Part shown: positions 466-63,585 of the stretch, one piece after another
Layout of the letters: every line of letters starts with the position of its first letter
How positions within the stretch are numbered: position 1 is the stretch's first letter
Assembly: GCA_964035545.1 (NCBI GenBank)
Contig: OZ037773.1
Coordinates: forward strand, 7,776,751-7,840,750
Direction of reading: 5' to 3'
DNA: 64,000 bases
Source: Bugula neritina
Lineage: Eukaryota; Bryozoa; Gymnolaemata; Cheilostomatida; Bugulidae
Position numbers and translations under genes: made by a program
Notes under the pieces: model-generated
The model's database searches: none
Told to the model about the DNA's origin: nothing
Seen by the model: only the letters and a program-made list of their open reading frames with translations

Positions 466-3400
466 CTGGCTAGTTTAAACGACATCATAGACGGTGATGA
501 GTCGGATGTGAAGTCTCAGCTGCAGTGGACGGATGTGGAAACAGACCAACCTGAGTATGTGATTGGTGAAGACGCCTTGTATCTGGACCCAGAGAGTGGC
601 TACCACATGATCTGGCCAATCAGCTATGGCGAGCTGAACGTATCGGCCCAGCCAGGTCACACGGTAGCCAACATTACACAGAGTCTAGAAACTTTGTGGT
701 CTTCTGCAATAGAGAAGTTTCTAGATATACCAAAAGCGGAGTTCAAGGTGAAGAGTGAATTGAATACTCCTTTAAATTTGCATTAGATCTGCTTTATTGT
801 ATAAATGCATCTCAGATAGACTAGATGTACAAAAATGAACTCGTTTTGAGTCTTTCAGTTTCCACAATGCATGTCTAAATATCAACCTATGATGTAGTTA
901 AACACTGGCTGCTACTTTAACATTTCAAACTAATGAACAACTGTACAGTTTTATGTTTTCGTACTGGCAATAGATACACAATATAAAATTTCTTATACTC
1001 TTTATATTCCCTCAACATATATTCAGGACGTTATATATGAAACACACCACAAAATATTGCCTGCTCTACCATATAGTATATGATTTAGGACTATACATGC
1101 ATTCTCCTCATCCCCGATATCTTCAACAGATCTCATATCAGGGCTATGATGCAGATAATACTTGAACGGCTCAACTTTTCTGCAGCTTTTCTCATCCAGG
1201 TAAGCTGATATTTTGTAGTATTATGGAATTTTAATATTCCGTGAAGCTTACATTTCACTTGCAAAATGTCAACTCCTTCAGTGAACTGGCACGCTAGTCA
1301 AATAAATAAACACATAATTAAAGTACCAGAATAATCAATATATTGAATAATGGTAATGGAGGGGGCAGTAAGTTAAGACTATAAAATAAATAAATTTTTA
1401 TTTTTAAGCAAATATCATGTTATCACGTTACAGAGTTTTTTAGTAACAAATAATTTCATGTTTGTTTTAAAATATTAATTTGAAGTTGAAATGTTGAAAG
1501 TTGAAGTTGAAATAAGTGAACTCAAATAAACCTCTTACTTTTGGTATGTGTCACATCATTTAATTAAACCCAATAACCGTCTCTTATTTAAAGGATCTAT
1601 CTGTAAAAATAAGGCGCTATTATTTCAAATATTTAAAATTTAACTAATTAATGGAAAGAAATTGAACTAATTATGGCTTTGCATGTCATTAAATGTGGAA
1701 GGGTGTAGCAAAACTAAGATTTTGCATTTTAAAAAGATAACTCTGTGAATGAAATGGGTGTTCTATTCAATACATATACTCACTTTGTTACTAGCTCTGT
1801 TATAAATATCAGCATAGTCCATAAAAAGAGTCATATGTGTGGAAGTTGTTCATATCTCCAACTTATTATGGCTGTTCAGGAATCGGTATGTGCCGGGTTT
1901 GGGGTCGGGTTGAGCAGTGTGTGCGTTGTGGATGTTGGAGATCATAAAACTAGCATAGCCTGTGTGGAAGATGGAATCTCTCTGGAACCCAGCAGGTCGG
2001 TTGGGTGTCTGTACCTCCCCTATCAATATAATAATAGCATTTTGATATGGCGTATAATATGGTGTATGTGTAGAATAACACTGCGATATAGTGGATAGTA
2101 TATACTATTATATGTAAAATAACATTGTGGTAAGGTGTATAGTTATATTATTATGTGTAGAATAACGCTGCGATATGGCGGCAGAGATATTACCCGAACA
2201 TTTTCCTGGCTGCTGGATCACATCTCCTTCCCATACATAGACTGTCAGCTGGACACCAACGTGCTGGATACACTTCTGCTGCAAGAACTGAAACATTCCT
2301 ATTGCCACATGGATACAGTGAGTAAATATTACTACAGCTATACTCTACTATACTATACTATATTCTATACTATACTACTCTATACTATACTATACTATAC
2401 TACTCTATACTATACTATACTATACTATACTACTCTATTCTATGTTACACTCCTCTATTCTACACTATACTACTTTATTCTACACTATTCTATACACCAA
2501 TTATTTTTTAATATAACTTTGTTACATCTGCTCTCACTTAAATTTGTCATTATACCCAGATTTACTCATTTTGCTAAGTTTTCCATTTTCCCTGCTGTCA
2601 TATAAGCACTGAAATCATCTAAACTGTAGGGTGAGATCTTCTTTGTAGCCCCAGTTCCATTGTTACAGGACTCAGTTGGTACAGAGGAGATTCACTTTCA
2701 AGTGAGACCACCCGCAAGCAATATTGTCCGCTACTCGATGCACGTGGGAGATGAGAGAATTGTGCCCACCTTAGCCGTCTTCTGGCCGGACATGTTTGGA
2801 CTGCAGGGTCAGTGAATGTGTTCAGTATAGCGGCTCTGCAGTACACAACAATCAGTGTTTTGAAGAATTTCAACTGATTTATATACTTTAGATCTGCAGA
2901 TGTTGAAACGTTGAGTTTTCACTCCATATTCTTACCTGTATTCCTATGGGTTACGGTTCAAAATCTACACAATCCTCACAATTTAAAATTATAGTTTTTT
3001 TAAAATTATGTTTTTGAGAGTAATTATATTAGAATTAGATATATGAAAAGGAAAAAAAGATATTAAGAAAGTAAAAGCTCTGCAGTTGTACAGTGGTAAA
3101 TTATATTAGGGAATGAATCTAATTTTGTGGATTTAAGTTAATATTTGTTATGAAGGAATACAGCAGAAACACCTAAATACCTCCCTCCTCTTGCCAACGT
3201 ATTTTAAATTTTTGTTCTTTTTCAGTTTTTTGCCAAAAAGTAAAATGTTTACAGAAACTAACAGACGCTTACTATTAGCTATGTCTGGTTGTCGCTTTCA
3301 GGTGACAAGCTGTTGTTGAATGGTGCTTATAAGGATAATGATCACACTGATGTCTTGGATGCAGACTATATCCACCAGACTAGAAGTAAGCAGGAAGAGG

Positions 3401-5122
3401 TCAGTTAATTTTAACTGATAGCAGCAGTAAAACTAATAATAGTAGTAACGGCAGCAGCGACATCAGCAGCAACTATGGGTTATGTATAATTTAAACTGGA
3501 ATTGTTGCGTTATCAAATAGATCGACTGGTATTACAATAGAATTAACAATTGATTTATTTAATAATATTTATTTGTTTATTATTTATCAATAGTTATTAA
3601 AGTAATTAATATTTATTATTTATGAATCATTTATTAATAGTTAATGCAATTAATCAGCTAGAATTAATGACATTTCTAAAAGTTTTCGCCTCTTGAAATG
3701 ATTCATGCTCCGGCTTTTTTTCCTTTCCATGAAGTTGTAAGGATTTAAATACACAATTACCATGTAAAGTGGAGGTATTTCATTTTATTAGTGAAAATGA
3801 TTTTATCGAAATTTGACCTCGTTTGAAACACATTGATAGTAGTAACTGTTGCATACGTGTGTGCAGTGCAAGTAACGATTCCATTAATGATCTTTGTGAG
3901 TGTGTGTAGAGTGCGAGACTGGCCGCCTTGAAGAAGAAGGAGCTGGCCAATCAACCGGAAGACTCCATGTTAGACGAGTCTTCTCAGAGGGATTTAGACG
4001 AGGACATGGATGCGGGGGATGACCCTGTCCCCCCTACCAGCTCCAGTAAACACTCAGATGGGTATGCTGTCCAATAGCTGTGCTCGTATTATGCATCTGT
4101 CCAATAGCTACACTCGTATTATACATCCGTCCAATAGCTACACTTGTATTATACATCTGTCCAATAGCTGCGCTTGTATTATACATCTGTCCAATAGCTG
4201 CAATGTATACTTACTCTGTTTCTAGTCAGCCAAATAATAAGAAGACAACTTCTGAAGAGAAACTTCCTTCTGATAAGTTAATGGCTTTAGATCTAGCTAT
4301 AATATGGAGCATAGAGCAGTGTGGTGAGTTTATATACATTATATATTATGCACGCACACACTTTCTTTATTACATAGCATGAAGTATTAACATTGCACCA
4401 AGTTCTCATATTATAATATAAGTTTTTGTTACCACCCAGACAACGACGAACTGAAAAAGAAGATGTATGGTAACATTCTATTGGTTGGCGGTGGTCTGCT
4501 CTTTGAGGGGGTGGAGAGTTTGCTGCAGTACAGAGTCTGGTTGAATCTACCACCTCAATACCAGTCAGCTGCCTCTGTTAACGTCCTCACCAGGTCAAAG
4601 GTTAGCTTCCCCCTAATACTACATCATTGTAGGAGTGTTGGTTTTGCATTCTTATAATATTTTCATAGCTCCATGCATTATCTATTGGATTTGCTATAGA
4701 AGGGGCTCAACAAATTTTGCTGTCAATTAATAAGTAAATCTTAGCAATGATTTTGAGACCTGTCTCAGAAAGGGTAGTCAAACAAATCAGAAAACTAAAT
4801 TAATATAACATTATATAAAATGTGTTATAATATAATAACTATGCTATATTGTAACCATTATATTGATTATAATATATTATTATCAAGTATCTCACATTAG
4901 ATGTCATTTTCCACTGTATGAGTTCTATTAGTTACTCATGTAAATGGAAAGAAATAGCTATCCTTTCAATTATTACAGGACGTAGACCCCCAGTATGTGT
5001 GCTGGAAAGGAGGCTCTATACTGAGCGTGCTCGATACTATCGGAGAGCAGTGGATATCCCGGGAAGAGTGGATTACCCACCAGAGTCGTATTGTCAGAGA
5101 GAAAGCCCTATTCTCCTGGTGA
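466..5122 (+). CDS. ACTR8: Actin-related protein 8 (INO80 complex subunit), 5' partial
   Basis: Ten exons: 466-747, 1089-1199, 1880-1995, 2161-2317, 2669-2807, 3302-3399, 3910-4061, 4226-4323, 4440-4600, 4979-5122. All junctions are GT-AG and keep frame, giving 485 residues to a TGA stop; vertebrate ARP8 is about 620, so the N-terminus is missing. Recognisable ARP8 stretches in order are YVIGEDALYLDP, ILLIPDIFNRSHIR, ESVCAGFGVGLSSVCVVDVG, TLAVFWPDMFG, KKKMYGNILLVGGGLLFEGV, and WKGGSILSVLDT with the tail EKALFSW ending like the family. In this family the protein is a nuclear actin fold that helps the INO80 remodeller bind nucleosomes and linker DNA. The segment around 3910-4250 is a charged linker typical of the ARP8 insertion. 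A repeat array crosses the acceptor at 2161. The identity is firm; only the missing start is open. Confidence 0.93.
2030..2185. repeat. Four-copy 41-44 bp repeat crossing an ACTR8 acceptor
   Basis: Copies of a unit holding TAGAATAACRCTGCGATAT recur at about 2033, 2071, 2115 and 2158. The last copy is the real 3' splice site (TGTGTAG at 2154-2160) plus the first 25 or so coding bases (ITLRYGG) of the exon starting at 2161. The intronic copies are diverged and one has stop codons. Confidence 0.8.
2336..2490. repeat. TATAC/ACTCTA microsatellite in ACTR8 intron
   Basis: Irregular run of CTATACTA and ACTCTA motifs that begins about 20 bases after the donor at 2318. The translated reading frame over it (poly-YTILY) is an artefact of the repeat. 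Confidence 0.85.
4066..4203. repeat. 30-bp tandem repeat starting at ACTR8 donor
   Basis: About 4.5 copies of a 30-bp unit (CTGTCCAATAGC followed by a TCGTATTATACAT-type half). It begins four bases into the intron after the donor at 4062 and runs almost to the acceptor at 4225, so the intron is essentially all array. Confidence 0.85.
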
Positions 5123-10159: not shown

Positions 10160-12874
10160 TCAGAATGTCAGCCAATCATCCAGATAAATGCAGTTGGAAG
10201 GTGACACGATGCCACCTATCTCACACTGTGCAGCTACCTACAAGCAATAAAACACATTATGTTTAATGATGAGTGCTGTACTTAGTGTGCTCAATGTAAC
10301 AAGTACATGTATAATGCAGAAGATAATGAGCATATACATACAGGGCATACTCCACAGGGTACTTTTACCATAGGAGTACTGTTCAATGGAGAGTTAACAA
10401 CTTTATACAATGCCTCCTGGTTGCTTGGGTCAAAAGATCGCTCCACCTTATTATCATACATCAACGCATCCATCACCATACCCATGTCATCGGCAGAGAG
10501 CTTTACCTGTCAGGTATAATACAAGCCAATACAATAGGTGACCAATACAGATAACTTTTACAGCTCTCCAATTAGAAGTCTTAAAAGATCTGAAGACTAT
10601 TAATTCTATCTAGATGATACTATCACTCCTAGTTTCATGTTGAGTAGAAAACGTATACAATTATTCAAATTATAGGAATAAAAAAAAAACTCAACTCCAA
10701 AAGATTGATTTTCTCAAAATCTAAAGCCAGTAGCTTACTAACTCAGGACAATGATATTACCTTACTAATTCCGAGAGCAGATATGTATTCACAGATCTCT
10801 TCGACTGAAGCGTATGATGAGTTTTTTATTGTTATTGGATCCGTGTGTTTGCTGCACGCGTCTTCGTACTGTAACAGCCAAAGAACTGCAGGTGTATTGA
10901 CATATCACCTGATCACAAAAAGCTATATAAATAATAAAATCAAAGAGCATTTACACCAATCACTTATTTTTTTTCTAATTTTATAGAATGAGATAAATAA
11001 ATGTTTCCAACACTTATTTAGTTTGCATTCTAACTCTGAAGATGAATACCGTGGTATTAGTATGTTATGTTATGTTATTATATGTTTGGAATATTAGTCT
11101 ATTTTGTTTAAAATGTTCCTCGTTGATTTATTTCTAATATTCTAACAAATTATTCACTTTATTCTGAAGTTTTTAGCACTCACTTCATTCTAAAGGTGCT
11201 AGTGCTTACCTTATTCTGAAGGAACCGATGGCACTGGTTAGTAAGAACGTCAACATACTCTGACTCAAAGCCCTGGTCGCTGTACCAGGGTCCACCAGTC
11301 ACGGATTTGTCAGGTTGAAGGTCATACAACATGTACACTTTCTTCTTGGCATTCTAAATCAGTAGTACTGGGAATAGTAAATGCCAATACTACCTACATA
11401 CTCTATTGCAATACTTTAGTGCAACACTCTATTGCAATTCTCTAGTGCAATACTTTAGTGCAATACTCTAATGCAATACTTTAGTGCAATACTCTATAGC
11501 AATACTCTAGTGCAATACTCTAGTGCACTCACTTTGACATGTTTGACAGATTTTATCAACTTTCGTGACACAAGATTCTGGAATATTTTGTTGAGAGGTT
11601 GGACGGATAGATTAGTCTTCAGCCGTACGTCTCTGCACCATATGCCTGGCATAGCATGGAAAGTATAATATAACAGCATATGTCTGGCATAGCATGGAAT
11701 GTATAATATAACAGCATATGTCTGGCATATAACACAATGATAAGCTACATTATGAATTATAAAAGACTTTAAATCAATGCATTTAAAAAGTAAAAGCACT
11801 TTAACTTCACCACTAATTATATTTGAATGCAAAATAATTATTCAATATTGGCAACTACAACATTACTGAATCTCATTGATAGACCAACTCTTGTTTAACT
11901 ACAGCGAACCATATAGACTAAACTTCGTCTAACCTAAAGTCTGACGACTTAAACTAACCTTAGATTTACCTACAAGTAGATTAAACTTTGCTTAACCTGC
12001 AATGCATGAACAAGACTAGACTCATGAGTTTAACCTACAGTGCATGAACAAGACTAGACTCATGAGTTTAACCTACAGGGATGAAATAGACTAACCTTTA
12101 TTTCCAGCAGCTGAAACAATTTGGAAAACAAGCCGCTCTTGACTGTCTCCACTTGGACCACCTCTGAAACCAGATGTACGGCACATACGGGTAAACAGGT
12201 AACGTTAGCAGTAAAGTAACAAAAAACTGAGGTTAGGCTGAATAGTATACACCTTTCTATTATTCTATTCTATTAAAAACCAATTTAGCACATGGATATG
12301 TATTTGCTTTACCAACTGGAAATCATTTAGACATGAGCTATGAGGAATAAACTATGAAAACAACTTTCATGTGATAGAAGAATGCGTAATAAAACATTCC
12401 AAAATACAAAACAAATGAGAATTTTACTCACTCCTCTTTAGTTTTGTATTTGTAAATGTATTCAGATCCAGATTTGAGTAAACTCAACTTTCCCTGCAAA
12501 GAATCAATCAGAACAGTTAATAACAAAAAAAGGCTTTACAGAGTACTACATCAGTTGTCATGGAAACAAGATACTAAAAGCAGCAGTACTATACCCACAG
12601 CTTGTAAGAGTCTGTTGTAAGCAGCTACTCTGTTCCCCAATTCTGTATCAGGAAGCAACTGTGCGAGTAGGGAGTCACTCACGCCTTCCTCATTTTGCTG
12701 AATGGCTTGCAACACCCTAATATAACAGAATAATCTAAGAGTTTTACAAAAAACCTTTACTTACTTGATAGATTTTGAGTCAAAATAGCATATATAAGCA
12801 CAATAGACATAGTATGTAGAATAAAAAAAATGATATCAAAACCTGGTATCAATATCCGAACTTCCTTCAGCCAT
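10160..12874 (-). CDS. POLR3F: RNA polymerase III subunit RPC6 (RPC39)
   Basis: Nine exons in transcription order: 12874-12843, 12716-12599, 12493-12432, 12163-12096, 11645-11533, 11353-11210, 10868-10761, 10506-10342, 10237-10160. They give 295 residues (family about 316) from MAEGSSDIDTR to SNCIYLDDWLTF. Two winged-helix domains are recognisable (DSLLAQLLPDTELGNRVAAY; GIWCRDVRLKTNLSVQPLNK, NLVSRKLIKSVK), then KKKVYMLYDLQPDKSVTGG, EYISALGISK and a C-terminal cysteine set PCGVCP-x4-C-x10-C. In RPC6 and archaeal TFE-beta the equivalent cysteines hold an iron-sulfur cluster, so the cluster is inferred here. The protein acts in the Pol III initiation subcomplex with RPC3 and RPC7. The donor of exon 2 was placed at GTGGGT because only that keeps QAGKLSLLKSG in frame. 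Head-to-head with NOP2. Confidence 0.95.
11163..11235. repeat. Three-copy ~27-bp repeat crossing POLR3F exon 6 donor
   Basis: Read on the minus strand, TTCAGAATAAG|GTAAGCACT (the exon end and donor at 11210/11209) is followed by TTTAGAATGAAGTGAGTGCT and then TTCAGAATAAAGTGAATAAT. The exon end and 5' splice site are therefore copied twice into the intron with drift. Confidence 0.75.
11400..11530. repeat. 13-bp tandem repeat starting at POLR3F exon 5 donor
   Basis: About ten copies of TGCAATACTCTAG and variants. On the minus strand the array begins five bases after the exon end (GTGAG then TGCACTAGAG), so it is anchored on the 5' splice site at 11532. Confidence 0.88.
11639..11731. repeat. 38-bp repeat carrying copies of POLR3F exon 5 acceptor
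   Basis: CATATGYCTGGCATA recurs at 11639, 11677 and 11715. The first copy is the real junction (minus strand TATGCCAG|GCATATG). The two upstream copies read TGCCAG|ACATATG and keep a usable AG. Confidence 0.85.
11995..12080. repeat. 38-bp direct repeat in POLR3F intron 4
   Basis: Two nearly identical copies of a unit containing CATGAACAAGACTAGACTCA and GAGTTTAACCTACAG, lying just inside the exon 4 donor at 12095. On the minus strand each copy carries GTAGGTTAAAC, which resembles the real AAAG|GTTAGT donor. Confidence 0.8.
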
Positions 12875-13894: not shown

Positions 13895-16800
13895 ATGGGA
13901 AGAAAATTAAATGTTGGCAAAAAGGCTGTAGAGGTGGCCTTCAATCCCGATACAAAATCGAAGCGTGTCAGGGCATCTAGTAGAAAAAACAAACGGCAGC
14001 AAGAGCCTGTTCTACCGAAATTTCTAGCTGGTGATGAAGCTGAACCAAAAAAGTTATCTTCTCATCAGAAGAAAAGGAAAAAGTTAGCTCTACTCAAGGA
14101 GGCTGAAAGAAAGGCTCAAAAACTTGCGAAACAAAGTACCAAAAAAGCTAAACTGGCTAAACCGAATGAACGCCAAAATCAAAATAAAGTTAATGGACGT
14201 GCAAAATCCAAAAGCAAACCTGAAGGTAAGATTGCTTGTAGTTATATGCTACTGCCTAACAGTTTTTTTTTTGCATATTGATATATAACTATCAATATGA
14301 ATATTTTATTTCTGGTAAGACTAAGTGTAAGTTGTAATGCTCTACAATTAATTTTCATTAAGTAATATGTATTTATACTATTAAGTTATGGCACTGATAG
14401 TGACATTACTACTAAGTTAAATAAGTAATAACACCAACTTATATAAACCGTCATTCTTAACTTTAATCAGTTACCTCATTAAATTTAATTATGAGTGCAA
14501 GTTGCAATAACCCTATTATTGTATTTTCATAGTCATAATTATAATAAATTTAAACTTGCTATACTCCTAATGATAAATTTAATGTTGGTAGACATTCCAC
14601 TTAAGTTAATATTGATCTACCGTGAACATGTTCTATTTTAGAGGAGATTAATGGAAGTGCCAGCGAATCAGACGAGAGTTTTGTGGAAGATGATATGAAC
14701 TTTAAAGATGACAATGCAGACTGGCTGACCCCTAAAAAGACAGGTGTACAGTTGCATGGTAAGCCCAAAGTTTATTTACCTGTCTTAGTCTTTTCACTAA
14801 ATGCCGTGTCCTTGGTAACCGATGTGATCGCTAGACAAAGCTGAACTTTCATTTAGACTTATGCTGCTTACAACTATATTTCGTATAATCAGACATATAT
14901 TCGGTACAAAAGTGTATTGAGTAGTTTTAATGCCCTCATCAGGTAGTGAAGATGACGAAGAAATGTCAGGAGATGAAGAAATGTCAGATGATGAAGAAAT
15001 GTCAGGAGATGAAGAAACGGATGATGTATCAGAAGCTGAGAGTGAGGAGGTAAGCTTTAGTGAAATTCTATCTCCATAAACTATTTGCAAACAGAAATCG
15101 AAAAGTTTACTTTTAGCAGAACCTGTTCTGTGGGCGTGACTTAGCACTTGTAAGTGTGACACGCTAATCTGTAGGTCACACTTCTTTAGTTGCGAGTATG
15201 TAAACTCGTCTGTATACTTCACAGGAGGATGAGTCAAACCTGCTTCCTATTGAGAGGAAAGCAAAGAAACTGCGACAGAAAGAGGTGGTTGATAAACAGC
15301 TGGCGGAGGAAGAGCTTGATATGAACATCAAACAAACAGAAGTTGGTATATTCACTGTTACTCAGTCGTAGTGCTTAGTAGATAATCACTTCATTAGCAG
15401 CAATAATGCTGACTGTCTGTATGATGATGTTGCAATTGTGTAGCTCAAAAACACTAGAAAAATTCTCTATCTCGTGCGACATATGCAGTAATAATTAGCG
15501 TTTCGTTGAAATTCTTGAGAGATATCTCTGAGAACTTGTAGATGTTTGTCCGGAAGTATTTAAGAGAGCTCGGTTTGTACGATGATTGTATAATTTAAAT
15601 TTAATCTTTTATCTTGTATTATATATTATACTACTTGCGAGTGTATTGTGTCAATGAGAAAACAACTCCCATAAACTCTCAGAGATGTAGAGTCAGTGTA
15701 TAATACTACCAGGTAAATATTAGCATGTGCTTGTGTCGTGTCAGGTTTATAAACTACCCAGTGGTCAGGACATCTCCAGAGACTCCAACCTTGCACCAGA
15801 TCTGGAGCTGCTCAAACAGAGGATCCGGGATATACTTCAGGTAGGTGGAGTTGTCTTCTTCTAGACTGGTAACTGTGCTCCAGCATAGAACTTATCAAAG
15901 CTCTCGGGCTATACATGATGAAACACTGAAGTATTGCACATGAATATGTAGACTGCTCCTTGTGTTGTGTTATTGTGTGAAGTGGCTGGCTTCTCATATA
16001 CCATAACAGCAGTAGTAATACTAGTGTGTTGATTGTTTGAAAAAGTTCAAGACATTGTGTTATAGATAAAAAGTAGAGCTATAGTAGTGTGTGTTCATGG
16101 AAATTTATATTTTAGGTTTTAGGTGACTTCAGTTCGAGGCGCGACTCCGGTACCCCGAGACAAAGTTATGTATCACAGCTACGCACTGATCTCTGCACGT
16201 ACTATGGTTACAATGAGTTTCTTATGGAGAAGTTGATGGCAATCTTTCCTCAAGACATCATTGAGTTTCTAGAGGCTAATGAAATTGATAGACCGGTATG
16301 TCCAGTATATACTAGCTAACTTCCTGTCAGTCATGTGGTTTACAGTATAATACAGTGCTTCCTCCATATCTCACCGTTCCATTTCTCACGAAATTCCATA
16401 GATTACGAGAAGGGTTTGGACTCATGTTTTGTGGCATATGTATGTGTGTATAGGGACAAAATGACCCAGTTTAACAGATCCGTGAGTTGAATCTGGTATT
16501 CTACAATCACTATGTCACGAATTGAGGTTTCGGGACTTGCAGCTTAGTGAGATATGGACATTACTTGTTGGCAGCTGGAAGATTGGTTTTCTTGTAGCTG
16601 AAATATTTCAAGTATTTCCGGTAATAATTGAAAACTTGTCCCTCTGTTCAGGTTACGATTAGAACCAACACTTTGAAGACGCGACGTCGCGACCTTGCTC
16701 AGGCCTTGATCAACAGAGGCATGAACCTTGACCCTATAGGAAAATGGTCCAAAGTGGGCCTAGTCGTATATGATACACAAGTTCCTATTGGTTAGTATTA

Positions 16801-19800
16801 CTAATATATATGATACATAGGTTTCTATTGGTTAATATTACTAATATATGATACACCAATTCCTATTGGTTAGTATTACTAATATATGATACACACGTTC
16901 CTATTGGTTAGTATTACTAATATATGATACACCAATTCCTATTCGTAAACTAAAATTATCTATTCATGATATTGCCAGGTGCGACCCCCGAATACCTTGG
17001 CGGTCATTACATGATACAAGGTGGGTCCAGTTTCCTCCCCGTCATGGCCCTGGCGCCTCAGCAGCACGAGAAAAACCTGGACATGGCGGCAGCTCCAGGC
17101 GGTAAGACTTCCTACATGGCAGCGCTGATGCAGAACACCGGCACCATCGTGGCTAACGACAAGAACAAGGCTAGGTTGAAGGTGAGTATGTAGTGTATAC
17201 TGTGAGTATGTAGTGTATACTGTGAGTATGTAGTGTATACTGTGAGTATGTAGTGGTATTTATTTGTTTATAATTTTCATTTGGTTGTAGGCAGTTATTG
17301 GAAATCTTCATCGAATGGGAATCACAAATTCTGTAATAACTAACTCAGATGGTAAAGATATTATTAAGGTGAATTTATGCAGCAATTTGTAACAACCTTT
17401 TTCTATAGCTGTACTATATTACTATCATCCAATGAATGAAAACTTAGCAAAGACAGTTGATCTTTCAGCATGATGAAATTCAAATTATCTTTTTTCATCA
17501 GAATTGTGATTTGTATTGCATTATCTTTACATTTTATTGTTTATTTATAAAAGGTAGGATTGATTTATGGATTCAACCACAGTTGTCAATTCATTCTTAT
17601 TTGTGCTGGTAAATAACAGCTCATTATTATTAAATTATTTCACGCTAGCATTATTTATTAATTTCTGTTAAAATTGACAAAACACTTTATTGTTTGTTAT
17701 AAACTGAAATTGATTATTTCTCAATGAATTTGTTCCAAGTCAGCCGTAATCATATCTATTACTGACCAGATAGTAGTAACTAGTAACTAGTAACTAGTAT
17801 CTAGTAACTAGTAACTAGTAACTAGTATCTAGTAACTAGTAACTAGTATCTAGTAACTAGTAACTAGTATCTAGTAACTAGTACCTAGTAATTAGTACCT
17901 AGTAGTATTTCACAGTAACCAATGGTTCTGCTCTGTTTCAGTATGCCAATAATTTTGACCGAGTGTTGCTTGATGCACCATGCAGTGGTACTGGAGTTAT
18001 ATCTAAAGACCAATCTGTCAAGGTAAGTTTAACATACAATGTTCTGTGTTTAGAGAAGTAAGTAATAGTAGCATTTAGATATGTGGAGGGTGCCTATTTC
18101 TTGTATAGATGTGTAAACCCTTACGTTATCTATAGATAATTTGTTTGGTTATGAAGGGCTGTATGTTGCATGTCTATAATCTACTTGTGTCAACTATTGG
18201 CTTAGCTGACCTTGTTTCAGCCAGCACTTTTGGTCTCGAAATGCATTCGTGATATTAATTAAACTTTGAAATGGCCATGTTGTGTCCTGAGTGCTAGCTG
18301 TGATGCATTATGGGTATGTTGTTTGATTGCTAGGCTAACAAGGATGAGGTAGACATCGCCAAATGTTCCCAGTTACAGCGTCAGTTGCTACTGACTGCCA
18401 TAGACTGCTGTGATGCTAAGAGTTCCAGTGGAGGGTATATAGTTTACTCTACCTGTTCTATTCTAGTGGAGGAGAATGAGCAGGTATAATATATCTAATA
18501 CTAGCTGTAATATATCTATTACTAGCTGTAATATATCTATTACTAACTGTAATATATCTATTACTACCTGTAATATATCTATTACTAGCTGTAATATATC
18601 TAATACTAGCTGTAATATATCTATTACTAGCTGTAATATATCTAATACTAGCTGTAATATATCTATTACTACCTGTAATATATCTATTACTAGCTGTAAT
18701 ATATCTAATACTAGCTGTAATATATCTATTACTAGCTGTAATATATCTAATACTAGCTGTAATATATCTATTACTAACTGTAATATATCTATTACTACCT
18801 GTAATATATCTAATACTAGCTGTTTTATATCTATTACTAACTGTAATATATATATTACTAACTGTAATATATCTATTACTAGCCGTAATATATCTATTAC
18901 TAACTGCAATATATCTATTACTACCTATAATATATATATATATATGTATATATTACTACCTTAAATATATATAATATTAGCTGTAATATATATATATTAC
19001 TACCTATAATATATGTAATACTACCTATAATACAACTAATACCAACTATAATATATTTAATATTAGCTAATTAGTGAACCCTTGACTGTAATATTGTGTC
19101 ATTTGAGCCAATAAAATGTTTATGCTATTTTTAGATGCCAAATGTTACAAAATAAACTTAAACTAGAAATTATATTTGAAAACTAGAATAGTATTCAGTG
19201 TGTATAGTAAAAAGACTTAAACAATACTACTGCATGTTGTGCTGTTAAGATCTGAAAGATAGGTAGTCTAACTGCTAGAGTTGTCTGCTATACATAAGAC
19301 ATTGTAAAATAAGTCTGAGTTAGGATAGCACTAGGTGATGCCGGCTGGTTGCATTTTGAGTTCATGACCCCATCATTTGTAAACAGGTGATTGACTACGT
19401 GCTGAAGAAAAGAGCTGTAAAACTTGTCTCTACTGGCCTAGATTTTGGTAAAGAAGGATTTAGCCAGTACAAGTACCACAGATTCCACCCATCTCTCAAA
19501 CACACGCGCAGGTAAACAGTCTAAATAGTTGTCAAGTAGAGCAAGTTTAGTAGAGTACTTTATGCTTGATTTTACTGTATAGAGCTTCGTCAATTACTGT
19601 AACGCAAGTCTAGTAAAGTATGTTATATTTGATAGTAAACTCTAAGGATTTGTTTTAACTTTTACAAAAACTTGTCACCCAACATTTAATTTGTTTCATA
19701 TCAAAATATAAGTTGCTGTATTTATATCTACAATATTTCAAACACTCATTGTACACAGCTGACAATTATGAGTTTTCTTACAAAGCCTGGTGTTACAAAT

Positions 19801-21236: not shown

Positions 21237-24024
21237 GGCAACCCCCAACGCGTCCCCAAATACCTTGGGTTGAACAAGCTCAGGCTATACCCGACTGCCC
21301 TCCAGGTTAGTGACCCTCACTAAGAGTGTACTGCTTCAAGTGTTCCACGTACAGAATATGCTCACCCAATACCTAATGCACTAATCCTATGTATATATGT
21401 GTCCTACAGGTCTGGAGTACTTAGCATACGTAGACTGCTTGTTTATTAAACAACAAGTCAGCGTCCTCGAGGCATTCACTGGCTTTGAAGCTGCCAATAA
21501 GTATGAAGTAGTGAACTCTCTTGGACAGCGAGTGTATCTAGCAGTTGAGAGTGAGTAAGACTATGAGTTGCGGCTATGTGTTGGACTACGAGTTTGACTG
21601 TGGTAGTAAAACTCATGTCATGGTGTGTTCTTGTAAGAAACATTCTACTGCCTACCCTGGCAAATTACACACCCTTCAAACATGATTGCCAAGTCACATC
21701 TGTTATGTTTTCACAAACACAAATATACTTTCTACATCAAAAAATTTTGTTCATAAACTGAACATGATTTATGCTCTCCAATTGGAATATTCAGAGTATA
21801 TTTGTTGAATCGTTTCGAAGTTATGCACGAGATATTAATTGTTTGCCAAGTTTAATTTTGTAACTGATAATTTTTTAAACTCTCATCAGAATCTGCTGCA
21901 GTTTGTTTTGAATGTCTTGAATAAGAAGCTTGTATATAATAAACCTACTTCACCCCTTACCTAGACTAACTTAAACAGAACTTTACCCCTTACCTAGACT
22001 AACTTAAACAGAACTTTACCCCTTACCTAGACTAACTTGAACAAAACTTTTGCGCTCAGGTTATTGTATGACTTGTGCTGACTTCTAGTAACTTTACAGA
22101 GACTGACTGCTGCACCAGACAGTGCTGTGGAAACAGCCGGCCGTTTGAGGTCAGCCTGTACGATGCTTACCAACGAGAAGTGCTGAAGGTTAAACGCTAT
22201 TTGCGATGTGATTCTTGTTTCTTTCCTTGCTGTCTGCAGAAGGTAAATTCAATTTCTGTGATATATCCATAATTTTGGAAGTTTCATGCACTTACGCTGT
22301 TATTCTCCACAAGAAGGAAGAAAAACTAGAACTAAAAACTTGGGCAGATACTATATTGGTGATTTCAAAGCTGCAGGCATAAAGTTTTAGTTTCAAAAGT
22401 TGTACTTGGATAAGTTGCATCCTTTTCTTTCAACCAGAGTACATATATAAGCAGTTGAAGAAATTAGACTGATAAAAGTTCTCTCTACAACAACTTTCAA
22501 ATAATATATAACTAGTAGAAGAACAATAATTTGTTTTCTACAACAACTTTCAAATAATATATAACTAGTAGAAGAACAATAATTTGTTTTCTACAATGCC
22601 TCAATCCTTTCAAGTATCTGAATGCTGATTGGTGAAGAGCGGGTGATCCACTCACGTGATCAGATAGTAATATATTGTGATCAGATAGTGATATATTGGG
22701 ATCAGATAGTGATATATTGTGATCAGATGGTAATATATTGTGATCAGATGGTAATGTATTGTGATCAGATGGTAATATATTGTGATCAGATGGTAATATA
22801 TTGTGATCAGGTGGTAGTATATTGTGATCAGGTGGTAATATATTGTGATCAGGTGGTAATGTATTGTGATCAGGTGGTAATATATTGTGATCAGGTGGTA
22901 ATATATTGTGATCAGATAGTGATATATTGTGATCAGGTGGTAATATATTGTGATCAGGTGGTAATATATTGTGATGAGATGGTAATATATTGTGATCAGG
23001 TGGTAATATATTAGATAATACTCAGGTGGATATTCTAACGCCGAATGACCAACTAATTGGAAGTGTGAAACAGACGTGGAGTATTTGTGTTCCAAATTAC
23101 AAAGTCCGTGATGCGCAGGAGAACAATGTGCTGGCTATAACGGGCCCTTTCTGTACCAGCTCGTGTTGTGGAGATGTGGAGTTTGAGGTGTGTGTTACAG
23201 TTAAGATTTTGATTTTATAAAAATTATAACTGGAAAAGTTTAGTGGAAAAAGTTTTGTCCAAATATTTTCTTGATCCAATCAATAATCCAGGAAATAGTT
23301 TGGGCAAAACCCTCAGAAAAATATTTTTGTCTTTTTCCATATTCAACGACACATTTTTCTTGAAGGCACTCTGAACTTACTAATGTACACATGGGGGGGG
23401 GGGGGTGTATAAGTTGGTGTTATAACAAAATCGTAACTAGCATTATTCGCTAGACCAGTTTTACTTTAGATATTAAGCACTCACGGAGACATTAAAATTG
23501 GCACTCTATCTAAATTATATTCCGGAGTGATAAAGGAAGCATTCACAGATGCCGATAATTTCCGAGTAACTTTTCCAATGGATTTGAATGTTTCAACAAA
23601 AGCTAGTCTGCTGGGAGCAGCCTTGTTGATTGTAAGTTTAATCATTGTGTTATTGTTACATATAAGTATAGTTTTTATTATATTATAATAAAAACATTAT
23701 ATTCATTGTATGACTATTGATACATATAAATATAGTTATTCTATAATTATTATATGTAAGCATATTTTAATATACGACTATTAATGCATATTATAAGAAT
23801 AGTTATTGTTATTACATCAAAAAATTAAAGAACTTGGGCTATCTCAATTTCTCTACTTCTGCACCTAATTGTAAACATGGCTCCCATTAAAAAGGCATGT
23901 CCTCCGTTCCTAATTTTTTGATATTTTGTTATAATCTCAGTTAAATATGTTTTATTTTCAGGATTTCATGTTCTTTGAGAAGGAGCAAGGTCAAGGAACA
24001 GATGGTATTGGGATGATAGCCTGA
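21237..24024 (+). CDS. PLSCR: Phospholipid scramblase, first coding exon missing
   Basis: Six exons: 21237-21305, 21410-21550, 22100-22242, 23026-23187, 23470-23631, 23962-24024. They give about 246 residues from [20 protein letters not shown] to GIGMIA. Scramblase signatures in order are [55 protein letters not shown], the cysteine cluster CDSCFFPCC (palmitoylated in PLSCR1), the [15 protein letters not shown] motif, and the calcium-binding loop [12 protein letters not shown], followed by a short hydrophobic stretch ([13 protein letters not shown]) before the end. The family mediates Ca2+-dependent lipid scrambling or transcription-related roles at the plasma membrane and nucleus. The exon at 21237 starts in mid-codon after an acceptor and has no in-frame ATG upstream, so a start exon remains to be found. 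Which vertebrate paralogue it matches cannot be told. Confidence 0.92.
21950..22048. repeat. 33-bp tandem repeat, three copies, PLSCR intron 2
   Basis: Unit starting CCCCTTACCTAGACTAACTT, three near-identical copies about 50 bases before the acceptor at 22099. Confidence 0.9.
22491..22596. repeat. Perfect 53-bp tandem duplication in PLSCR intron 3
   Basis: Two identical 53-bp copies (start CAACTTTCAAATAATATATA) at 22491 and 22544. The lack of divergence implies a recent duplication or an assembly duplication. Confidence 0.92.
22657..23012. repeat. 21-bp minisatellite before PLSCR exon 4 acceptor
   Basis: About 17 copies of a 21-bp unit (TGATCAGGTGG then TAATATATTG). The array ends 13 bases before the exon 4 acceptor, and the unit's GATCAG|GTGGTAATAT resembles the real junction ACTCAG|GTGGATATTC. 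It is open in frame on both strands, which is why long false reading frames appear. Confidence 0.92.
23393..23405. repeat. Homopolymer tract, 13 G
   Basis: Uninterrupted G13 in PLSCR intron 4, unusual in this AT-rich sequence. Confidence 0.95.
23816..23922. mobile_element. Small MITE-like palindromic element in PLSCR intron 5
   Basis: Terminal inverted repeats ATCAAAAAATTAAAGAAC (23816-23833) and GTTCCTAATTTTTTGAT (23906-23922) match with about one mismatch over 17 bases, 107 bp end to end. No coding capacity. Confidence 0.65.
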
Positions 24025-24083
24025 GAACCAAGATAATTTCTATTCTGAGACTGTACAATATGTATATCACATGTGATTAACCT

Positions 24084-24089
24084 AATAAA
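24084..24089 (+). promoter_or_regulatory. Polyadenylation signal of PLSCR
   Basis: AATAAA 60 bases after the PLSCR stop codon, in a stretch followed by TGTTGTACACTG. Confidence 0.6.
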
Positions 24090-24196
24090 TGTTGTACACT
24101 GTCCTGGAACAAAGGCTACTTGTGTTACACTAATTCTTTGGAAAGTGAAAATAAATTTATATGAAAATAAATGAAGTTGAGTTTACAATAAAGTTT

Positions 24197-24202
24197 TTTA
24201 TT
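24197..24202 (-). promoter_or_regulatory. Candidate polyadenylation signal of FAM161
   Basis: AATAAA on the minus strand about 500 bases beyond the FAM161 stop. Several overlapping A-rich motifs make the choice uncertain. Confidence 0.35.
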
Positions 24203-24582: not shown

Positions 24583-24700
24583 AGGCAGCTTGACTACCTA
24601 CAGAGGGCAGTTTCACTACCTACAGAGGATAGCTCTAGTACCTACAGAGGGCAGCTTTAGTACCTACAGAGGGTAGCTTCACCACCTACAGAGGGTACGC
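24583..24700. repeat. 28-bp repeat in FAM161 3' UTR
   Basis: Four to five copies of CTACCTACAGAGGGCAG with variable spacers end 4 bases from the FAM161 stop codon. Together with the convergent 3' UTRs it fills most of the gap between PLSCR and FAM161 (24025-24703), in which no other gene is seen. Confidence 0.85.
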
Positions 24701-39802: not shown

Positions 39803-57765
<17,963 letters not shown>

Positions 57766-59371
57766 ATTGGTAAATAGTTTTGAGTCCAAACACCTACTTA
57801 CAGATAATACATTTTTCACTGCTATGAGCAAAACTAGGTGAACTCTGAAATACCATTCTACTTTTGGGGAACCACTAGCACTCTACATTAGACTAATTTC
57901 CGTAATATTAGTTAACTATGGGAGCAAATTTGTCTGACGAATAATAAACTACAGATATAATATTGCAGTAGTTGTCTTTTCATGTGAGTATGAAGTCAGA
58001 TATCTCACAGCATGCTAACGGAGCAAAATACTTCCCCGATGCTTATCCGGCGGGAAATTGAACATTACTTATAGTTGTGCTCCTTCAGTCACTGTAGCCT
58101 ACTGTTATACTTCTAGTTCTAGTCAGTTAGAGTTAGAGTTCTAGTCACAGTGTATGTTCATTTTTACTTTTATGTCGTTTAATGTAATCAATTTAGTATG
58201 TTCCCTTCAATTTTTACTAAGTTCAAACTCCAAGCATGAGACTGAGTTGCACTTGCAGTAGTGAAGTCTTGTACTTGTAGTTGTAGTTTAAGTTATAATA
58301 AAAATAATAATTAAATATAATAATAATATTATTATTAATAATAATATTATATTTACAGTTTCTAAAAAACATTGTTATTTATTATAATACTAATTTACTT
58401 CAGTAATACTCATTACTAACACTAATAGACTAACACTAAATAGTAATTGTAATGAATTACATTACCATGTAACTGCAATTGAATTGTAATACTAATTAAC
58501 AATAACTGTAATTGTAATAATAATTATAATGCATTAAATTTAATGGTAATTGACAAATTTTCATGTAATTGTATTACTATTTGTAAATAATTAGATTCAT
58601 ATGTAATTGACCCCAACCCTGATAGTTACTTTTAATGTTACACTTACCGTTAATGAAAATTAAATTTGATGTAATTAATTACAATGCCAATCACAATTAC
58701 TTTTGTTCTCACAAGGAATAAATAGAAGTTATACAATGACAATCTTACCTCTGAATTCCAACTACCAGTACCTGGGGCAGTTTTGATGGTGGGGAACTTC
58801 CTTTGTTCTCAACAGTTATAATTGAGTGATACAATACTGCATTGAATTAATCTGAATTTTTTATTAAGCAGTAGACATGACAGGAAAAGTATGAAATTTT
58901 TAAGATTTTAAAATTTGAAATAATATTGATTGACATGCATTGATTATAAAATAATAAAGTAATTGTAAGAATCAATTACGTTAAATGTGTAATAAATTAC
59001 AATTACATTTTTATACATCAATTACAAATTGCATTCAATTACTTTAAAAAAGGTAATTAATTACAACCAACTACAATTACCCCAACTCTGCTCATGACCA
59101 GATATAGATGCTTCTTTGATAATTATATTATAATTGCGCTATCAACCAGCATCATTGCCATTTTAGAGACACCCTTACAATTCATCTAGCATACACACTC
59201 TACCAATATGTGTTGATTCAATTGTCTAGAACGATCTGACGTATGCCACTTTTCACCCTACCAGCACAGTGTGTTAAGCAACAAATACAGTATTTTCTCT
59301 GTATATTCTTAAGTATATGGTATTGTTTTAGCGGAGTGCTTAGCTTTATCAAACTGTAAGGCAACTCAGCA
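57766..59371. other. Shared upstream region of MAP4K and DTL
   Basis: 1.6 kb between divergent starts. The part from 58250 to 59090 is very AT-rich with AATTACAATTAC-type runs. Two similar motifs, AATTGACCCCAACCCTG (58607-58623 region) and AATTACCCCAACTCTG (59076-59091 region), look like ends of a degenerate repeat. An E2F-like site lies at 58049-58057. No exon seen. Confidence 0.5.
58049..58057 (+). promoter_or_regulatory. E2F-like motif GGCGGGAAA
   Basis: GGCGGGAAA about 285 bases upstream of the MAP4K start and 1.3 kb upstream of DTL. DTL is an E2F target in vertebrates. A second GGCGGGAAAC lies at 59394-59403 inside DTL exon 1. Short motifs occur by chance, so support is weak. Confidence 0.3.
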
Positions 59372-62300
59372 ATGATTCTGCAGAATGTGAGGAGGCGGGA
59401 AACTCAAACTGGTAAGTCACAAAGCACCTCAGTGTAGAGTAGCGTTTTCCAGTATGAATTACCATAGTACAGTGTTAATTCATATTCTATCACGGCAGTG
59501 TAGCGGCTGTTGTATCTATCACCAAAGTGTAGTGGTTGTAAATGTCACAGTAATGTAGTGGTTGTTGTAGGTAGTCCACTGTTCAACACACCGCAGTATG
59601 ACTGGTTACTTACTCGGTTCACTAACACCAGACAGGATACTCATTTGGTTGAAGGAGATTTTCACTCTGTTCCTGAAGTGGTGAGTAGTGTTAGTGTTAT
59701 TCCTAGCGAGAAAGAGTAGTACTAGTGATATAGAGAGAGTAGTAATTAGTGCTAGTACTAGTGATATAGAGAAAGCAGTAATTAGTGCTAGTACTAGTGA
59801 TATAGAGAAAGAGTAGTGCTAGTACTAGTGTTATAGAGAAAGCAGTAATTAGTGCTAGTACTAGTGATATAGAGAGTAGTAATTAGTGCTAGTACTAGTG
59901 TTATAGAGAAAGTATAAAGAGTGAAATGCTGCAGTGTGTTACTCAAAGGTCTGTCAAGGAGTGCATGTTATAACCAAGTGTTGATAATCAGCAACTTGTC
60001 ACTTGGGGTGGGAAACATTGTCATCAATATTCAGTTTAATCAATGCCTAGCTTTTTTACCTGAATTTATCACATCCAACACTTTAAAGTCTACTGTTTTT
60101 CATTGTGCTAGGTTAGAGTAGATTATATCAATATTTCAATCATATTCTGTATTTTGTAATTATAAATATGAAGTTTATTTCATTTCTTTGTTAATCTATA
60201 TTCTGTTTATATCCTTCACAAAATGTAAATATATTTCGCTAACTATTTGTGTCAGGCTAATTATCAATAGTTTAGTGTCTGAATTTCGCTTGGTTAACTA
60301 CAATCATCAATGAGATAAACTCGAGTCATTTTATCAAAGACGCTGGTATTAAACCATCTGAAGCTATGCCTGAACCCTGCCAGATAATAAGCACGAGAAG
60401 TTATCCGCTCTCTGTTGCAGGAGTCCGTAGCCGGGACTGTAGTCAAGTTCTGTGAGAGTTACTCCAACTCGCACATGTTGGCCCTGGCTGATGAGGATGG
60501 GATGATGTACCTGTTCAACTCCGTACTCTCTGGAAGGGACTGTCTTATGACCAGTGTGTATATATAACTTTCTCTCTCTCTCTCTTTCCCATCCATTGTT
60601 TTGCATAGTATAAGTTCTTAATCCAAGTGTTTGAGTTCTTACGGTACGACATCAAACCCCTCCATTTTGTTGGACACTTGCAGAGTGGAGTGTGCACAAG
60701 AATGCTATATTTGACCTGGAGTGGGTCCCCTTCTCAGCTAAGATCGTCACTGCATCTGGACACCAGGTGGCGTGTCTGGTTGACATCACGACTAAACAGA
60801 CTATCGACACGTTCAAAGGACACGTGTCTAGTCTGAAGACCATAGCTAGCAGGCGAACAGACCCATGTGAGTCAACTAGTCTCTACACTCTTCTATAGTT
60901 TATGTGTTGTCATACAGTCATGACTTCCGGTCTGTTAGTGTGGTGGTGGTTGCTGCACATTCATTTTAAGCTGCTAGCATCATAAGTAGCTGCAATTATA
61001 GCATAGCAGGATGGTATAGCATTATAGTATAGCAGTATAGCATAGTAGTATAGCAGAATATCATTACATAGTATAGCATAGCCAGATAACTTTATTAGTC
61101 TTTGTTCTTCATCATCCAGATGTTTTCGCTACGGGCGGTAGAGATGGCAGTATCTGTATATGGGACCCGAGGGTGTCGAGGAGATGTAATACTATTCCTT
61201 CTTCGAATGAGATAAGACACGCCCACTCCTCGGGTTCAAGGTCAACTAGGAAGTCTACCAGCCAGTCAATCACCGGTCTGTGTTTCCAGGATGAGACAAC
61301 TCTTGTGTCGTGTGCCTCCAATGATAGGTGATTGAACTTATATTACTATGTGCTTATATTACTACACTCTGTTTATATTACTACACTCTGTTTATATTAC
61401 TACACCCTGCTTATATTACTACACTCTGTTTATATTACTGCACTCTGTTTATATTACTACACTCTGTTTATATTGCTACTCTCTGTTTATATTACTACTC
61501 TGTTTATATTACTACACTCTGATTATATTACTACACTCTGTTTATATTACTACACTCTGTTTACATTACTACACTCTGTTTATATTACTGCACTCTGTTT
61601 ATATTACTACACTCAGTTTATATTACTATACTCTGTTTATATTACTGCACTCTGTTTATATTACTACACTCAGTTTATATTACTACACTCTGTTTATATT
61701 ACTACACTCTGTTTATATTACTGCACTCTGTTTATATTACTACACTCTGTTTATATTACTACACTCTGTTTATATTACTACACTCTGTTTATATTACTAC
61801 ACTCTGTTTATATTACTACACTCTGTTTATATTACTGCACTCTGTTTATATTACTACACTCTGTTTATATTACTACACTCTGTTTATATTACTACACTCT
61901 GTTTATATTACTGCACTCTGTTTATATTACTACACTCTGTTTATATTACTACACTCTGTTTATATTACTACACTCTGTTTATATTACTGTACAGCTCTAT
62001 TAAAGTATGGGACTTGAGAAGAAGCTATAAAACCCATAAATCTAATCCTGTGGCCAAATACAAGTTCACTTATCACGGCAAGAGCCGCAAGCATGGTGGG
62101 TACTTCTCTACTCTGTTGTATTTCTGTCTGTGTGTCTGGCAGCGGCTGACTCTAGGTAGGTGCTGCCGAAACTATCCACTCTCACTTCCTGTTTAGAGAA
62201 TACTGAGTGTCCAGCAGTCCCCATGTATTGTGTGAAATTGTTGTGCTATTGGATGTTGAACATTGATATACTAAACACCATGCTGTATTCAAACGCTACA

Positions 62301-63585
62301 GTTTATTAAGGTCCAATGCTTATTAAATGTTAGCCGAGTGTTAATGAAGTTTGTTATAAAACCAGTCTGCACGAGGAAATTTAACTGGTGGTTACCAGTC
62401 ATTAACAGTTGTGCATTTATTCTGCGTGTGAAAGTATTGTTTTCTTGAGGCCAAAATTTAAATGAGTCCGGGACTCCTGGAAGTTGTGGTTAGACGCCCC
62501 TCAGCTGATTCTCTTTTCATTTCAGTTGGCTATTCTGGTATCTGTATGGATTTCTCCAGAAGTTTCATCTACGCCAACTGCATAGATGACTGCATCTACC
62601 AGTTCAGTGGTATCAACTATCAAGATGCAGGTAATTGTCTGCCCCTGACGTCTGTTCTACACGTCTGCAACTAGCTGTTGCTCATTGCAATTTTCAGATG
62701 TAATTTATTGTGTCTCATATAGTTTAGAATAATGTACATATAGCCTGTGTACCATGGACCAACTGCATGATACTATCATACATATATGTGTAGTAGTAGA
62801 AGGTTTGCTTATGTTTTATGAACTGAGTTGGAATTATAAAGTTACTGGTTTTAAAGACGTTGCATCATTTTCTTATTCTGATGGTTTAGGCTTTTTGTTT
62901 TAGTTATCTCCTCATTCAAAGGACATAAAAACAAGACTTTCTTTGTTAAATCTGCCCTTTCGCCTGACGGGAATTATCTGCTCACTGGATCTTCTGATCA
63001 CAATGCCAGAATATACAGCACAAATATCTCCCCGCACTTGCGTGATAAGTCGTACTCGCTCCACGGCCACACAGAGGAAGTTACATCAGTAGCATGGAGC
63101 TTCTACGACACGTGTAAGGTGAGTAGTGTTAGTCACAGTACATTAGAGTGTTAGTCACAGTTTACCAGAGTGTTAGTCACAGCACACTAGAGTGTTAGTC
63201 ACAGTATACTAGAGTGTTAGTCACCATGTTTTCCAGATTGCTACTATCAGTGATGATGACACTCTGAAAATATGGCGGCTCGGAGAGACGAGCTTGCACG
63301 CTGACATTTCCGGTGAATGTGAAGATTTATCTCCCCGTGAGTCTGAGAGGTTGACTGGTATAAGAGACAGAGCTGCTCCGCTGGTAGTCAAACCTGCCTT
63401 GTGTCCTTCCAGTTCCTCTACAGTGAGCTCTACAGCAGCACATGACATTCACGTGACCGCTACAGCAGCACATGATACTTCGGTAGCTCCAGTTTCTGCA
63501 GCACCCACAACCTCCTCTACACACACCCCTCCCCTTCCAACACAAACTAGTCCTGCGTTCCCACCTTGCGTGGGGGAAGATGGCG
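59372..63585 (+). CDS. DTL: DTL/CDT2, CRL4 ubiquitin-ligase substrate receptor, 3' partial
   Basis: Nine exons seen: 59372-59411, 59571-59680, 60421-60553, 60684-60866, 61120-61327, 61995-62095, 62526-62630, 62904-63118, 63237-63585, giving 481 residues before the window ends. WD40 blades: HMLALADEDGMMYLFN, KNAIFDLEWVPFSAKIVTAS, FKGHVSSLKT, FATGGRDGSICIWDPR, ETTLVSCASNDSSIKVWDLRR (the WDxR motif used to bind DDB1), CIDDCIYQFSG, FKGHKNKTFFVKSALSPDGN, HGHTEEVTSVAWSF and ISDDDTLKIWRLGE. A low-complexity Ser/Thr/Pro/Ala tail then starts. In animals CRL4-CDT2 destroys CDT1, p21 and SET8 on PCNA-loaded chromatin. The C-terminal PIP box, if present, lies beyond the window. A donor follows GATGGCG at 63586. 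Confidence 0.94.
59490..59570. repeat. ~28-bp repeat running into DTL exon 2 acceptor
   Basis: TCACCAAAGTGTAGTGGTTG, TCACAGTAATGTAGTGGTTG and an earlier GGCAGTGTAGCGGCTGTTG copy. The last one forms the acceptor TTGTTGTAG|GTAGTCC. Confidence 0.8.
59705..59915. repeat. ~40-bp repeat in DTL intron 2
   Basis: Copies of AGTAATTAGTGCTAGTACTA with GTGATATAGAGAAAG, starting about 25 bases after the donor at 59681. Beyond it the intron (59916-60420) holds nothing recognisable. Confidence 0.9.
61345..61990. repeat. 19-bp minisatellite filling DTL intron 5
   Basis: About 33 copies of TTTATATTACTACACTCTG fill the intron from the exon 5 donor (61328) to the exon 6 acceptor (61994). The junction TATTACTGTACAG|CTCTATTA resembles one unit (TATTACTACACTCTGTTTA) with a small insertion. 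False reading frames of 223 and 282 codons cross it. Confidence 0.95.
63119..63228. repeat. ~23-bp repeat filling DTL intron 8
   Basis: GAGTGTTAGTCACAGTAYAC units, four to five copies. The first overlaps the donor (AAG|GTGAGTAGTGTTAGTCACAG). The 118-bp intron is nearly all array. Confidence 0.92.

What the first reader, a model, noticed from the sequence alone, without database searches (positions are those of the whole stretch)
2030..63228. Minisatellites are repeatedly anchored on splice junctions and copy them
Across at least six of the nine genes, arrays start or end within a few bases of a GT or AG splice site, and in several the unit contains exon bases. Clear cases: NOP2 donors at 16791 and 17182, ACTR8 acceptor at 2160, POLR3F exon 5 (both ends) and exon 6 donor, MAP4K exon 3 (both ends), exon 20 donor and exon 25 acceptor, and DTL introns 5 and 8. 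Tandem duplication across splice sites is known as one route to intron gain and alternative site formation, but this density in one 64-kb window is unusual. It implies either a mutational process that acts at exon-intron borders or selection that tolerates arrays only where spare splice sites keep the reading frame.
Basis: partly seen in the sequence, partly recalled or inferred. Interest (0 to 1): 0.88.

Follow-up and report, generated by a model that had tools for sequence, protein, structure and literature searches.

The report
Minisatellites butting against splice donor sites
This intron-rich animal genome is full of short tandem repeats; some do copy splice sites, but fewer than random placement would give, while repeats that begin just inside the start of an intron are several times more common than expected, which is mildly interesting and not yet explained.

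Summary
Arrays lie within 10 bp of a predicted junction in seven of nine window genes, and in four places the unit includes exon bases (NOP2 16767, ACTR8 2065, POLR3F 11639, MAP4K 39878). Yet against placement blind to junctions, arrays spanning a junction are too few (donor 5, acceptor 4 of 101; 11.6 expected each). Junction words are tandemly copied about as often as, or less often than, intron words. Frame-keeping is not supported (period divisible by three in 4 of 18 near-junction arrays). What survives is one-sided: arrays start 0-10 bp inside donors about three times more often than uniform placement allows (17 of 90, P 2.5e-5; outside the window 7 of 49, P 0.012; in 40 homology-checked introns 7 of 19, P 8e-4). 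Acceptors show nothing. Best reading: in-situ tandem duplication outside exons, with exons as walls, plus an unexplained donor-edge preference. The window is unusually array-rich.

The parts
16767..16943 (+). NOP2 array, 38 bp x 4.6; unit = last 24 exon bases + donor + 14 intron bases; spans donor 16791
   Evidence: TRF; sequence; junction gap-free against human NOP2
17182..17255 (+). NOP2 array, 20 bp x 3.7, 100%; starts exactly at donor GTGAGT
18487..19068 (+). NOP2 array, 21 bp x 28; starts 3 bp inside donor 18484
2065..2175 (+). ACTR8 array, 44 bp x 2.5; runs 15 bp into exon past acceptor 2160
4067..4202 (+). ACTR8 array, 30 bp x 4.5; starts 5 bp inside donor 4062 (junction not homology-checked)
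11398..11527 (-). POLR3F array, 13 bp x 10; starts 5 bp inside donor of exon 5
11639..11729 (-). POLR3F array, 38 bp x 2.4; runs 7 bp into exon 5 past its acceptor
11992..12093 (-). POLR3F array, 38 bp x 2.7; starts 2 bp inside donor of exon 4
22656..23012 (+). PLSCR (scramblase) array, 21 bp x 17; ends 13 bp before corrected acceptor 23025
   Evidence: hand-spliced protein matches Scramblase profile positions 6-220 of 221
24877..25049 (-). FAM161 array, 71 bp x 2.4; starts 10 bp inside donor (junction not homology-checked)
32461..32671 (+). FUT8 array, 30 bp x 7; starts 8 bp inside donor 32453 (outside the aligned part)
33356..33476 (+). FUT8 array, 40 bp x 3; ends 5 bp before acceptor 33481
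34186..34226 (+). FUT8 array, 19 bp x 2.2; starts 2 bp inside corrected donor 34184
34488..34637 (+). FUT8 array, 47 bp x 3.2; ends 3 bp before acceptor 34640
39878..40097 (-). MAP4K array, 21 bp x 10.5; fills the intron before the last exon from 8 bp inside the donor to 13 bp into the exon
41381..41481 (-). MAP4K array, 41 bp x 2.4; starts 1 bp inside donor of exon 20
46784..46938 (-). MAP4K array, 30 bp x 5.2; starts 3 bp inside donor (junction not homology-checked)
51711..51870 (-). MAP4K array, 34 bp x 4.6; ends at the acceptor AG of exon 3 (junction not homology-checked)
61354..61988 (+). DTL array, 19 bp x 33.5; 26 bp inside donor, 6 bp before acceptor
63125..63224 (+). DTL array, 22 bp x 4.5; 6 bp inside donor, 12 bp before acceptor

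Best explanation
The arrays are ordinary minisatellites born in place by local tandem duplication, mainly wherever noncoding sequence is of the repeat-prone kind in this genome (rich in TA, GT, AC, AG steps, poor in AA runs). Exons are walls: duplications inside or across them are mostly removed by selection. A duplication across a donor can be tolerated when the first donor is still used, so the exon is unchanged and the copies become intron; this would account for NOP2 16767 and the four like it in other loci. In introns a few hundred bases long such walls leave many array ends near junctions. Shown: the positions, exon bases in units, units confined to their own locus in two cases, exon depletion, fewer spanning arrays than junction-blind placement gives, and the shared composition of intronic and intergenic arrays. 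Inferred: that selection does the removing and that the first donor is used. Not explained: the roughly three- to five-fold excess, depending on the null, of arrays starting 0-10 bp inside donors.
For: Two units searched genome-wide with up to 3 mismatches occur only at their own array (one of locus L030, 28 of 28 matches; NOP2 16767, 3 of 3). First-copy rates outside the window: intron 1.2%, intergenic 1.1%, exon 0.33%. Junction-blind placement of 101 arrays expects 11.6 spanning each side; 5 donor and 4 acceptor seen. Composition-adjusted copying falls towards zero more than 8 bp into exons. A composition score trained on the window orders the duplication rate in the other loci from about 0.25% to 13.6%. 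Largely the same 4-mers (TAGT, TACT, CTAG, GTAT and complements) are enriched in 97 intronic and 56 intergenic arrays. No frame signal: 4 of 18.
Against: The donor-edge excess is not predicted: 17 of 90 against 6.1, 20 of 101 against 4.1 under junction-blind placement, 7 of 19 against 2.1 in homology-checked introns. Inside the window introns and intergenic DNA differ: first-copy rate 3.45% against 0.41% (9,982 intergenic positions only). In introns with 100 bp or more of non-array sequence, positions are U-shaped (17,8,3,7,3,2,5,5,8,15 of 73). Genome-wide, the donor word CAGGTAAGT gives 450 close pairs among 2675 copies, against 12 among 1775 for a composition-matched word and 4 among 840 for the word read backwards; AAGGTGAGT gives 287 among 2485, read backwards 26 among 1862.
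Confidence: 0.65

Rival explanations
1. A duplication process linked to the donor site (for example at paused polymerase, an RNA-DNA hybrid or a replication problem at the exon-intron step) starts minisatellites just inside donors.
For: Donor-only excess in the window, outside it and in homology-checked introns; words 13-20 bp inside donors O/E 2.91 (1.38-4.65) outside the window; donor words over-represented in close pairs genome-wide.
Against: Words on the junction itself are not above the interior; every other donor-side intron bin has an interval that includes 1; the genome-wide pairs could not be placed at real donors.
Confidence: 0.2
2. The excess is clipped remains of old duplications that once spanned the donor; the exon part of the copies has since been lost.
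For: The number of missing spanning arrays (11.6 expected, 5 seen) is of the order of the excess just inside the donor.
Against: No trace of exon bases one period downstream for arrays starting 0-10 bp inside (18 arrays at 12 bases: identity 0.241 in register, 0.250 off register).
Confidence: 0.12
3. Selection keeps arrays at borders because spare splice sites preserve the reading frame.
For: Spare copies scoring as well as the true donor exist in spanning arrays (NOP2 at +78 and +116; L025, L027, L028).
Against: Periods divisible by 3: 4 of 18 near junctions, 32 of 82 elsewhere; spanning arrays below expectation.
Confidence: 0.04
4. Gene-model or TRF artefact: junctions are wrongly placed at array edges.
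For: The gene finder did err in two array-adjacent places (PLSCR exon 22685-22999, FUT8 donor 34184).
Against: The signal holds in 40 introns whose junctions I judged gap-free in alignments to PDB relatives (7 of 19 against 2.1, P 8e-4); correcting FUT8 turned an apparent exon overlap into a start 2 bp inside the donor.
Confidence: 0.05
5. Introner-like elements: a mobile intron-making unit spread over many genes.
For: Arrays lie in introns of many genes.
Against: Two units searched are locus-specific; outside the window arrays are as common between genes.
Confidence: 0.01

Closest known systems
Human internal tandem repeats at exon-intron boundaries (De Grassi and Ciccarelli 2009, PMC2812944; outline and passages seen)
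   Same: Minisatellites (there on average 30-bp units, 4 copies, 160 bp) that lie at exon-intron boundaries and can alter gene structure.
   Different: There they were found by copy-number difference between recent paralogues, with transcript evidence for new introns or splice forms; here there is no paralogue, allele or RNA comparison, and the window genes checked are conserved animal genes.
[quoted passage not shown] passages seen; also potato PMC4974935, search listing and start of abstract only)
   Same: Tandem duplication that includes a splice site or proto-splice site.
   Different: There a duplicated proto-splice site in coding sequence makes both ends of a new intron. Here the duplication covers one end of an intron; in all nine spanning cases the other splice site lies outside the array, though by only 4 and 8 bp in L030 508 and MAP4K 39878.
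Introner-like elements (fungi, PMC4457414; search listing and start of abstract only)
   Same: Repeated sequence in introns.
   Different: Not dispersed: two tested units occur only at their own locus.

Membership tests
Minisatellite | Head-to-tail units of roughly 7-100 bp | tested here: met
   TRF; most intronic arrays of the window have periods 7-74 bp and 2-34 copies; a few have periods 4, 5, 82 or 103
Minisatellite | Copy number varies between alleles or relatives | not testable with these tools
   one assembly, no relatives held for it
Boundary tandem repeats as in human ITRs | Array lies across or at an exon-intron boundary | tested here: met
Boundary tandem repeats as in human ITRs | Changes splicing or makes a new intron | not testable with these tools
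   no RNA data
Intron gain by tandem duplication | Both splice sites of the intron come from the duplicated segment | tested here: not met
   NOP2 16767 array ends 35 bp before the acceptor; ACTR8 2065 array starts 69 bp inside the donor
Intron gain by tandem duplication | Intron position is new in the lineage | not tested
   intron positions of relatives were not compared
Introner-like element | Same sequence at many loci | tested here: not met
   28 of 28 and 3 of 3 matches at the own array; two units only

The most novel reading that the evidence does not exclude
The 5' splice site, or something bound to or happening at it, promotes birth of minisatellites in the first ten bases of introns, so that introns in this animal lengthen preferentially from their donor end.
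Probability: 0.2. Interest if true: 0.65.

Novelty: new member of a known kind. Interest (0 to 1): 0.4.

Why it matters
If only walls and purifying selection are at work, the case is a warning: in array-rich, intron-rich genomes many repeat ends will fall near splice sites without any special process. If the donor-edge preference is real, it gives a testable link between splice-site position and a duplication process, and a directional route for intron lengthening. Either way the window offers clear examples of donor and acceptor duplication in conserved genes.

Tried and rejected
Coverage of duplicated sequence against distance from the junction first looked like strong junction depletion (donor 0-5: 0.082 against 0.167 in intron interiors). 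It is confounded, because only one copy of an array can sit on the junction; I replaced it by first-copy rates and do not lean on it.

Relic test for clipped exon-spanning duplications: negative. Age test, edge against middle arrays: no clear difference (P 0.67; P 0.10 with score 100 or more). Hairpin or palindrome origin of units: units are not more self-complementary than shuffles. A core motif (TACTA/TAGTA): the enrichment over matched noncoding sequence is largely reproduced by dinucleotide-shuffled units for that word, so I read it as composition; some words (GTAAT, GTAATA, AGTAAT) exceed the shuffles and were not followed. Array-proneness of the donor core: clearly raised only at offsets -2 to 0, which I judge too narrow to explain the excess.

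I could not place those arrays relative to genes. Single words scatter widely around the composition score (CAGGTAAGT scores below the control AAGCTAGTG when the score is trained on the window only), and one array supplies 54 of the 287 AAGGTGAGT pairs, so I treat this as inconclusive. AAGTAGCTG has a single count (3286) but its pair search did not complete; nor was the pair search of AAGCTGAGT.

Rows dropped or corrected: one search used 90 of 99 arrays (fully inside introns). Satellite locus L014 was left out and of the word rates. The two wrong window introns around 22685-22999 were left out and the profiles, and corrected and the placement count; still held them. The FUT8 correction enters only the placement count. 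The 40 homology-checked introns were picked by eye from the alignments; a few lie within about eight residues of a small gap.
Full report
Setting. The window is C9:7776751-7840750 of a 215.8-Mb assembly in 295 contigs. It is an intron-rich animal genome of about 35% GC; I did not identify the species. Many small contigs carry kinase genes with in-frame TAA and TAG, which look like ciliate-code genes (reading recalled, not tested). No related genome is held, so no comparison between species was possible.

Gene models. I wrote a semi-Markov gene finder and self-trained it on the window plus 20 loci of 10 kb, then plus 30: 362 introns, median 326 bp. The nine window genes are ACTR8, a leucine-rich repeat protein, POLR3F, NOP2, a scramblase, FAM161, FUT8, MAP4K and DTL (the leucine-rich repeat gene is named from its sequence by eye). 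Alignments to PDB relatives run through many junctions without gaps: POLR3F, NOP2 (21), ACTR8 (22), FUT8 (23, 66), DTL (24), MAP4K CNH domain (64). Two errors next to arrays were found and corrected: the scramblase array had been called an exon, and the FUT8 donor is 34184, not 34225 (FUT8 checked, scramblase supported by a 261-bit domain match of the hand-spliced protein).

Observation. TRF lists 104 rows in the window, 59 after removal of overlaps. The clearest is NOP2 16767-16943: the unit is the last 24 exon bases, the donor and 14 intron bases, present in 4.6 copies reaching into the intron. At 17182 a perfect 20-bp array starts exactly at the GT.

Chance. For the 90 of 99 arrays (period 7 or more) lying fully inside introns, each was compared with uniform placement in its own intron. 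Within 10 bp of the donor: 17 seen, 6.1 expected, P 2.5e-5; window 10 of 41 against 3.4, P 5e-4; other loci 7 of 49 against 2.7, P 0.012. Within 10 bp of the acceptor: 7 against 6.1. Shielding the last 15 to 35 bp of introns does not change this. In 40 window introns with homology-checked junctions, 7 of 19 inside arrays start within 10 bp of the donor against 2.1, P 8e-4; acceptors 3 against 2.1. The window suggested the hypothesis, so the other loci are the fairer test, and there the evidence is moderate.

Junction copying. If arrays were placed without regard to junctions, 11.6 of 101 should span a donor and as many an acceptor; 5 and 4 do (window 1 and 3, other loci 4 and 1). Counting 9-letter words with an exact copy 15-45 bp away, first copies only, the rate outside the window is 1.2% in introns, 1.1% between genes, 0.33% in exons, 1.3% for words starting at -3..-1 of donors and 0.9% at 0..2. 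In the window it is 3.45% in introns but only 0.41% in its small intergenic part. Adjusted for composition, donor junction words have O/E 0.27-0.39 (window) and 0.60-0.80 (others); words 3-60 bp inside donors have O/E 1.2-2.9, with one bin (13-20 bp, others) whose interval excludes 1. Acceptor words 0-12 bp have O/E 0.30-0.47 outside the window and 1.2-1.7 in it. So donors are not hot at the junction itself, exons are cold, and the first part of introns is mildly raised.

Mechanism. Units are locus-specific in the two cases searched, so those arose in place. Intronic and intergenic arrays share much the same biased composition. This is what local slippage or duplication of repeat-prone DNA, filtered by selection on exons, would give. 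Tolerance at donors is expected when the first donor keeps being used; that use is inferred. The reading-frame idea is not supported (4 of 18 near-junction periods divisible by 3; 32 of 82 elsewhere).

What is left. The donor-edge excess is not explained by relics of exon bases, by age or, I judge, by the array-like donor core alone. Genome-wide word counts also lean towards donor words being duplicated more than controls, but the arrays could not be placed at genes. I keep a donor-linked process as a live rival at about 0.2. On checking I lowered confidence in the best explanation from 0.68 to 0.65, because equal intron and intergenic rates hold only outside the window.

Region. The window has 11.9 arrays per 10 kb of intron against 4.6 in the other loci, and 60% of it is intron against 40%. 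A high count of near-junction arrays in this window is therefore partly a density effect.

Literature. In the listings of searches I saw no report of donor-edge minisatellites; they cover only the open-licence library and I opened two papers in part. The nearest precedent is the human study PMC2812944 (outline and passages seen), where minisatellites at exon-intron boundaries can yield new introns and splice forms.

Noticed in passing
small contigs of G000 (e.g. C188, C173, C64): Kinase genes with many in-frame TAA and TAG, as in ciliate codes; probably ciliate contamination or associates in the assembly (not tested).
   Followed up: no
C1 and C2 of G000: Of 9 loci with close CAGGTAAGT pairs listed on C1 (35.6 Mb), 8 lie within 4 Mb of an end; those on C2 also crowd at low and high coordinates, as if such arrays were denser towards chromosome ends (first 100 of 450 pairs).
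   Followed up: no
14957-15017: In-frame 18-bp coding minisatellite in NOP2 exon 3. Of 12 arrays inside predicted exons, 9 have periods divisible by 3; one of these 9 is the false scramblase exon, and of the other three one is the FUT8 error and one lies in an exon I think false. The gene finder favours open frames, so this is biased.
   Followed up: partly
54001-54508: A 252-bp unit repeated twice with 100% matches.
   Followed up: no
L014 (C1:14800001-14810000): Nearly the whole 10-kb locus is one diverged satellite array of period 60.
   Followed up: no
introns of all loci: In introns with 100 bp or more outside the array, arrays favour both intron ends (17 and 15 of 73 in the outer tenths).
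   Followed up: partly
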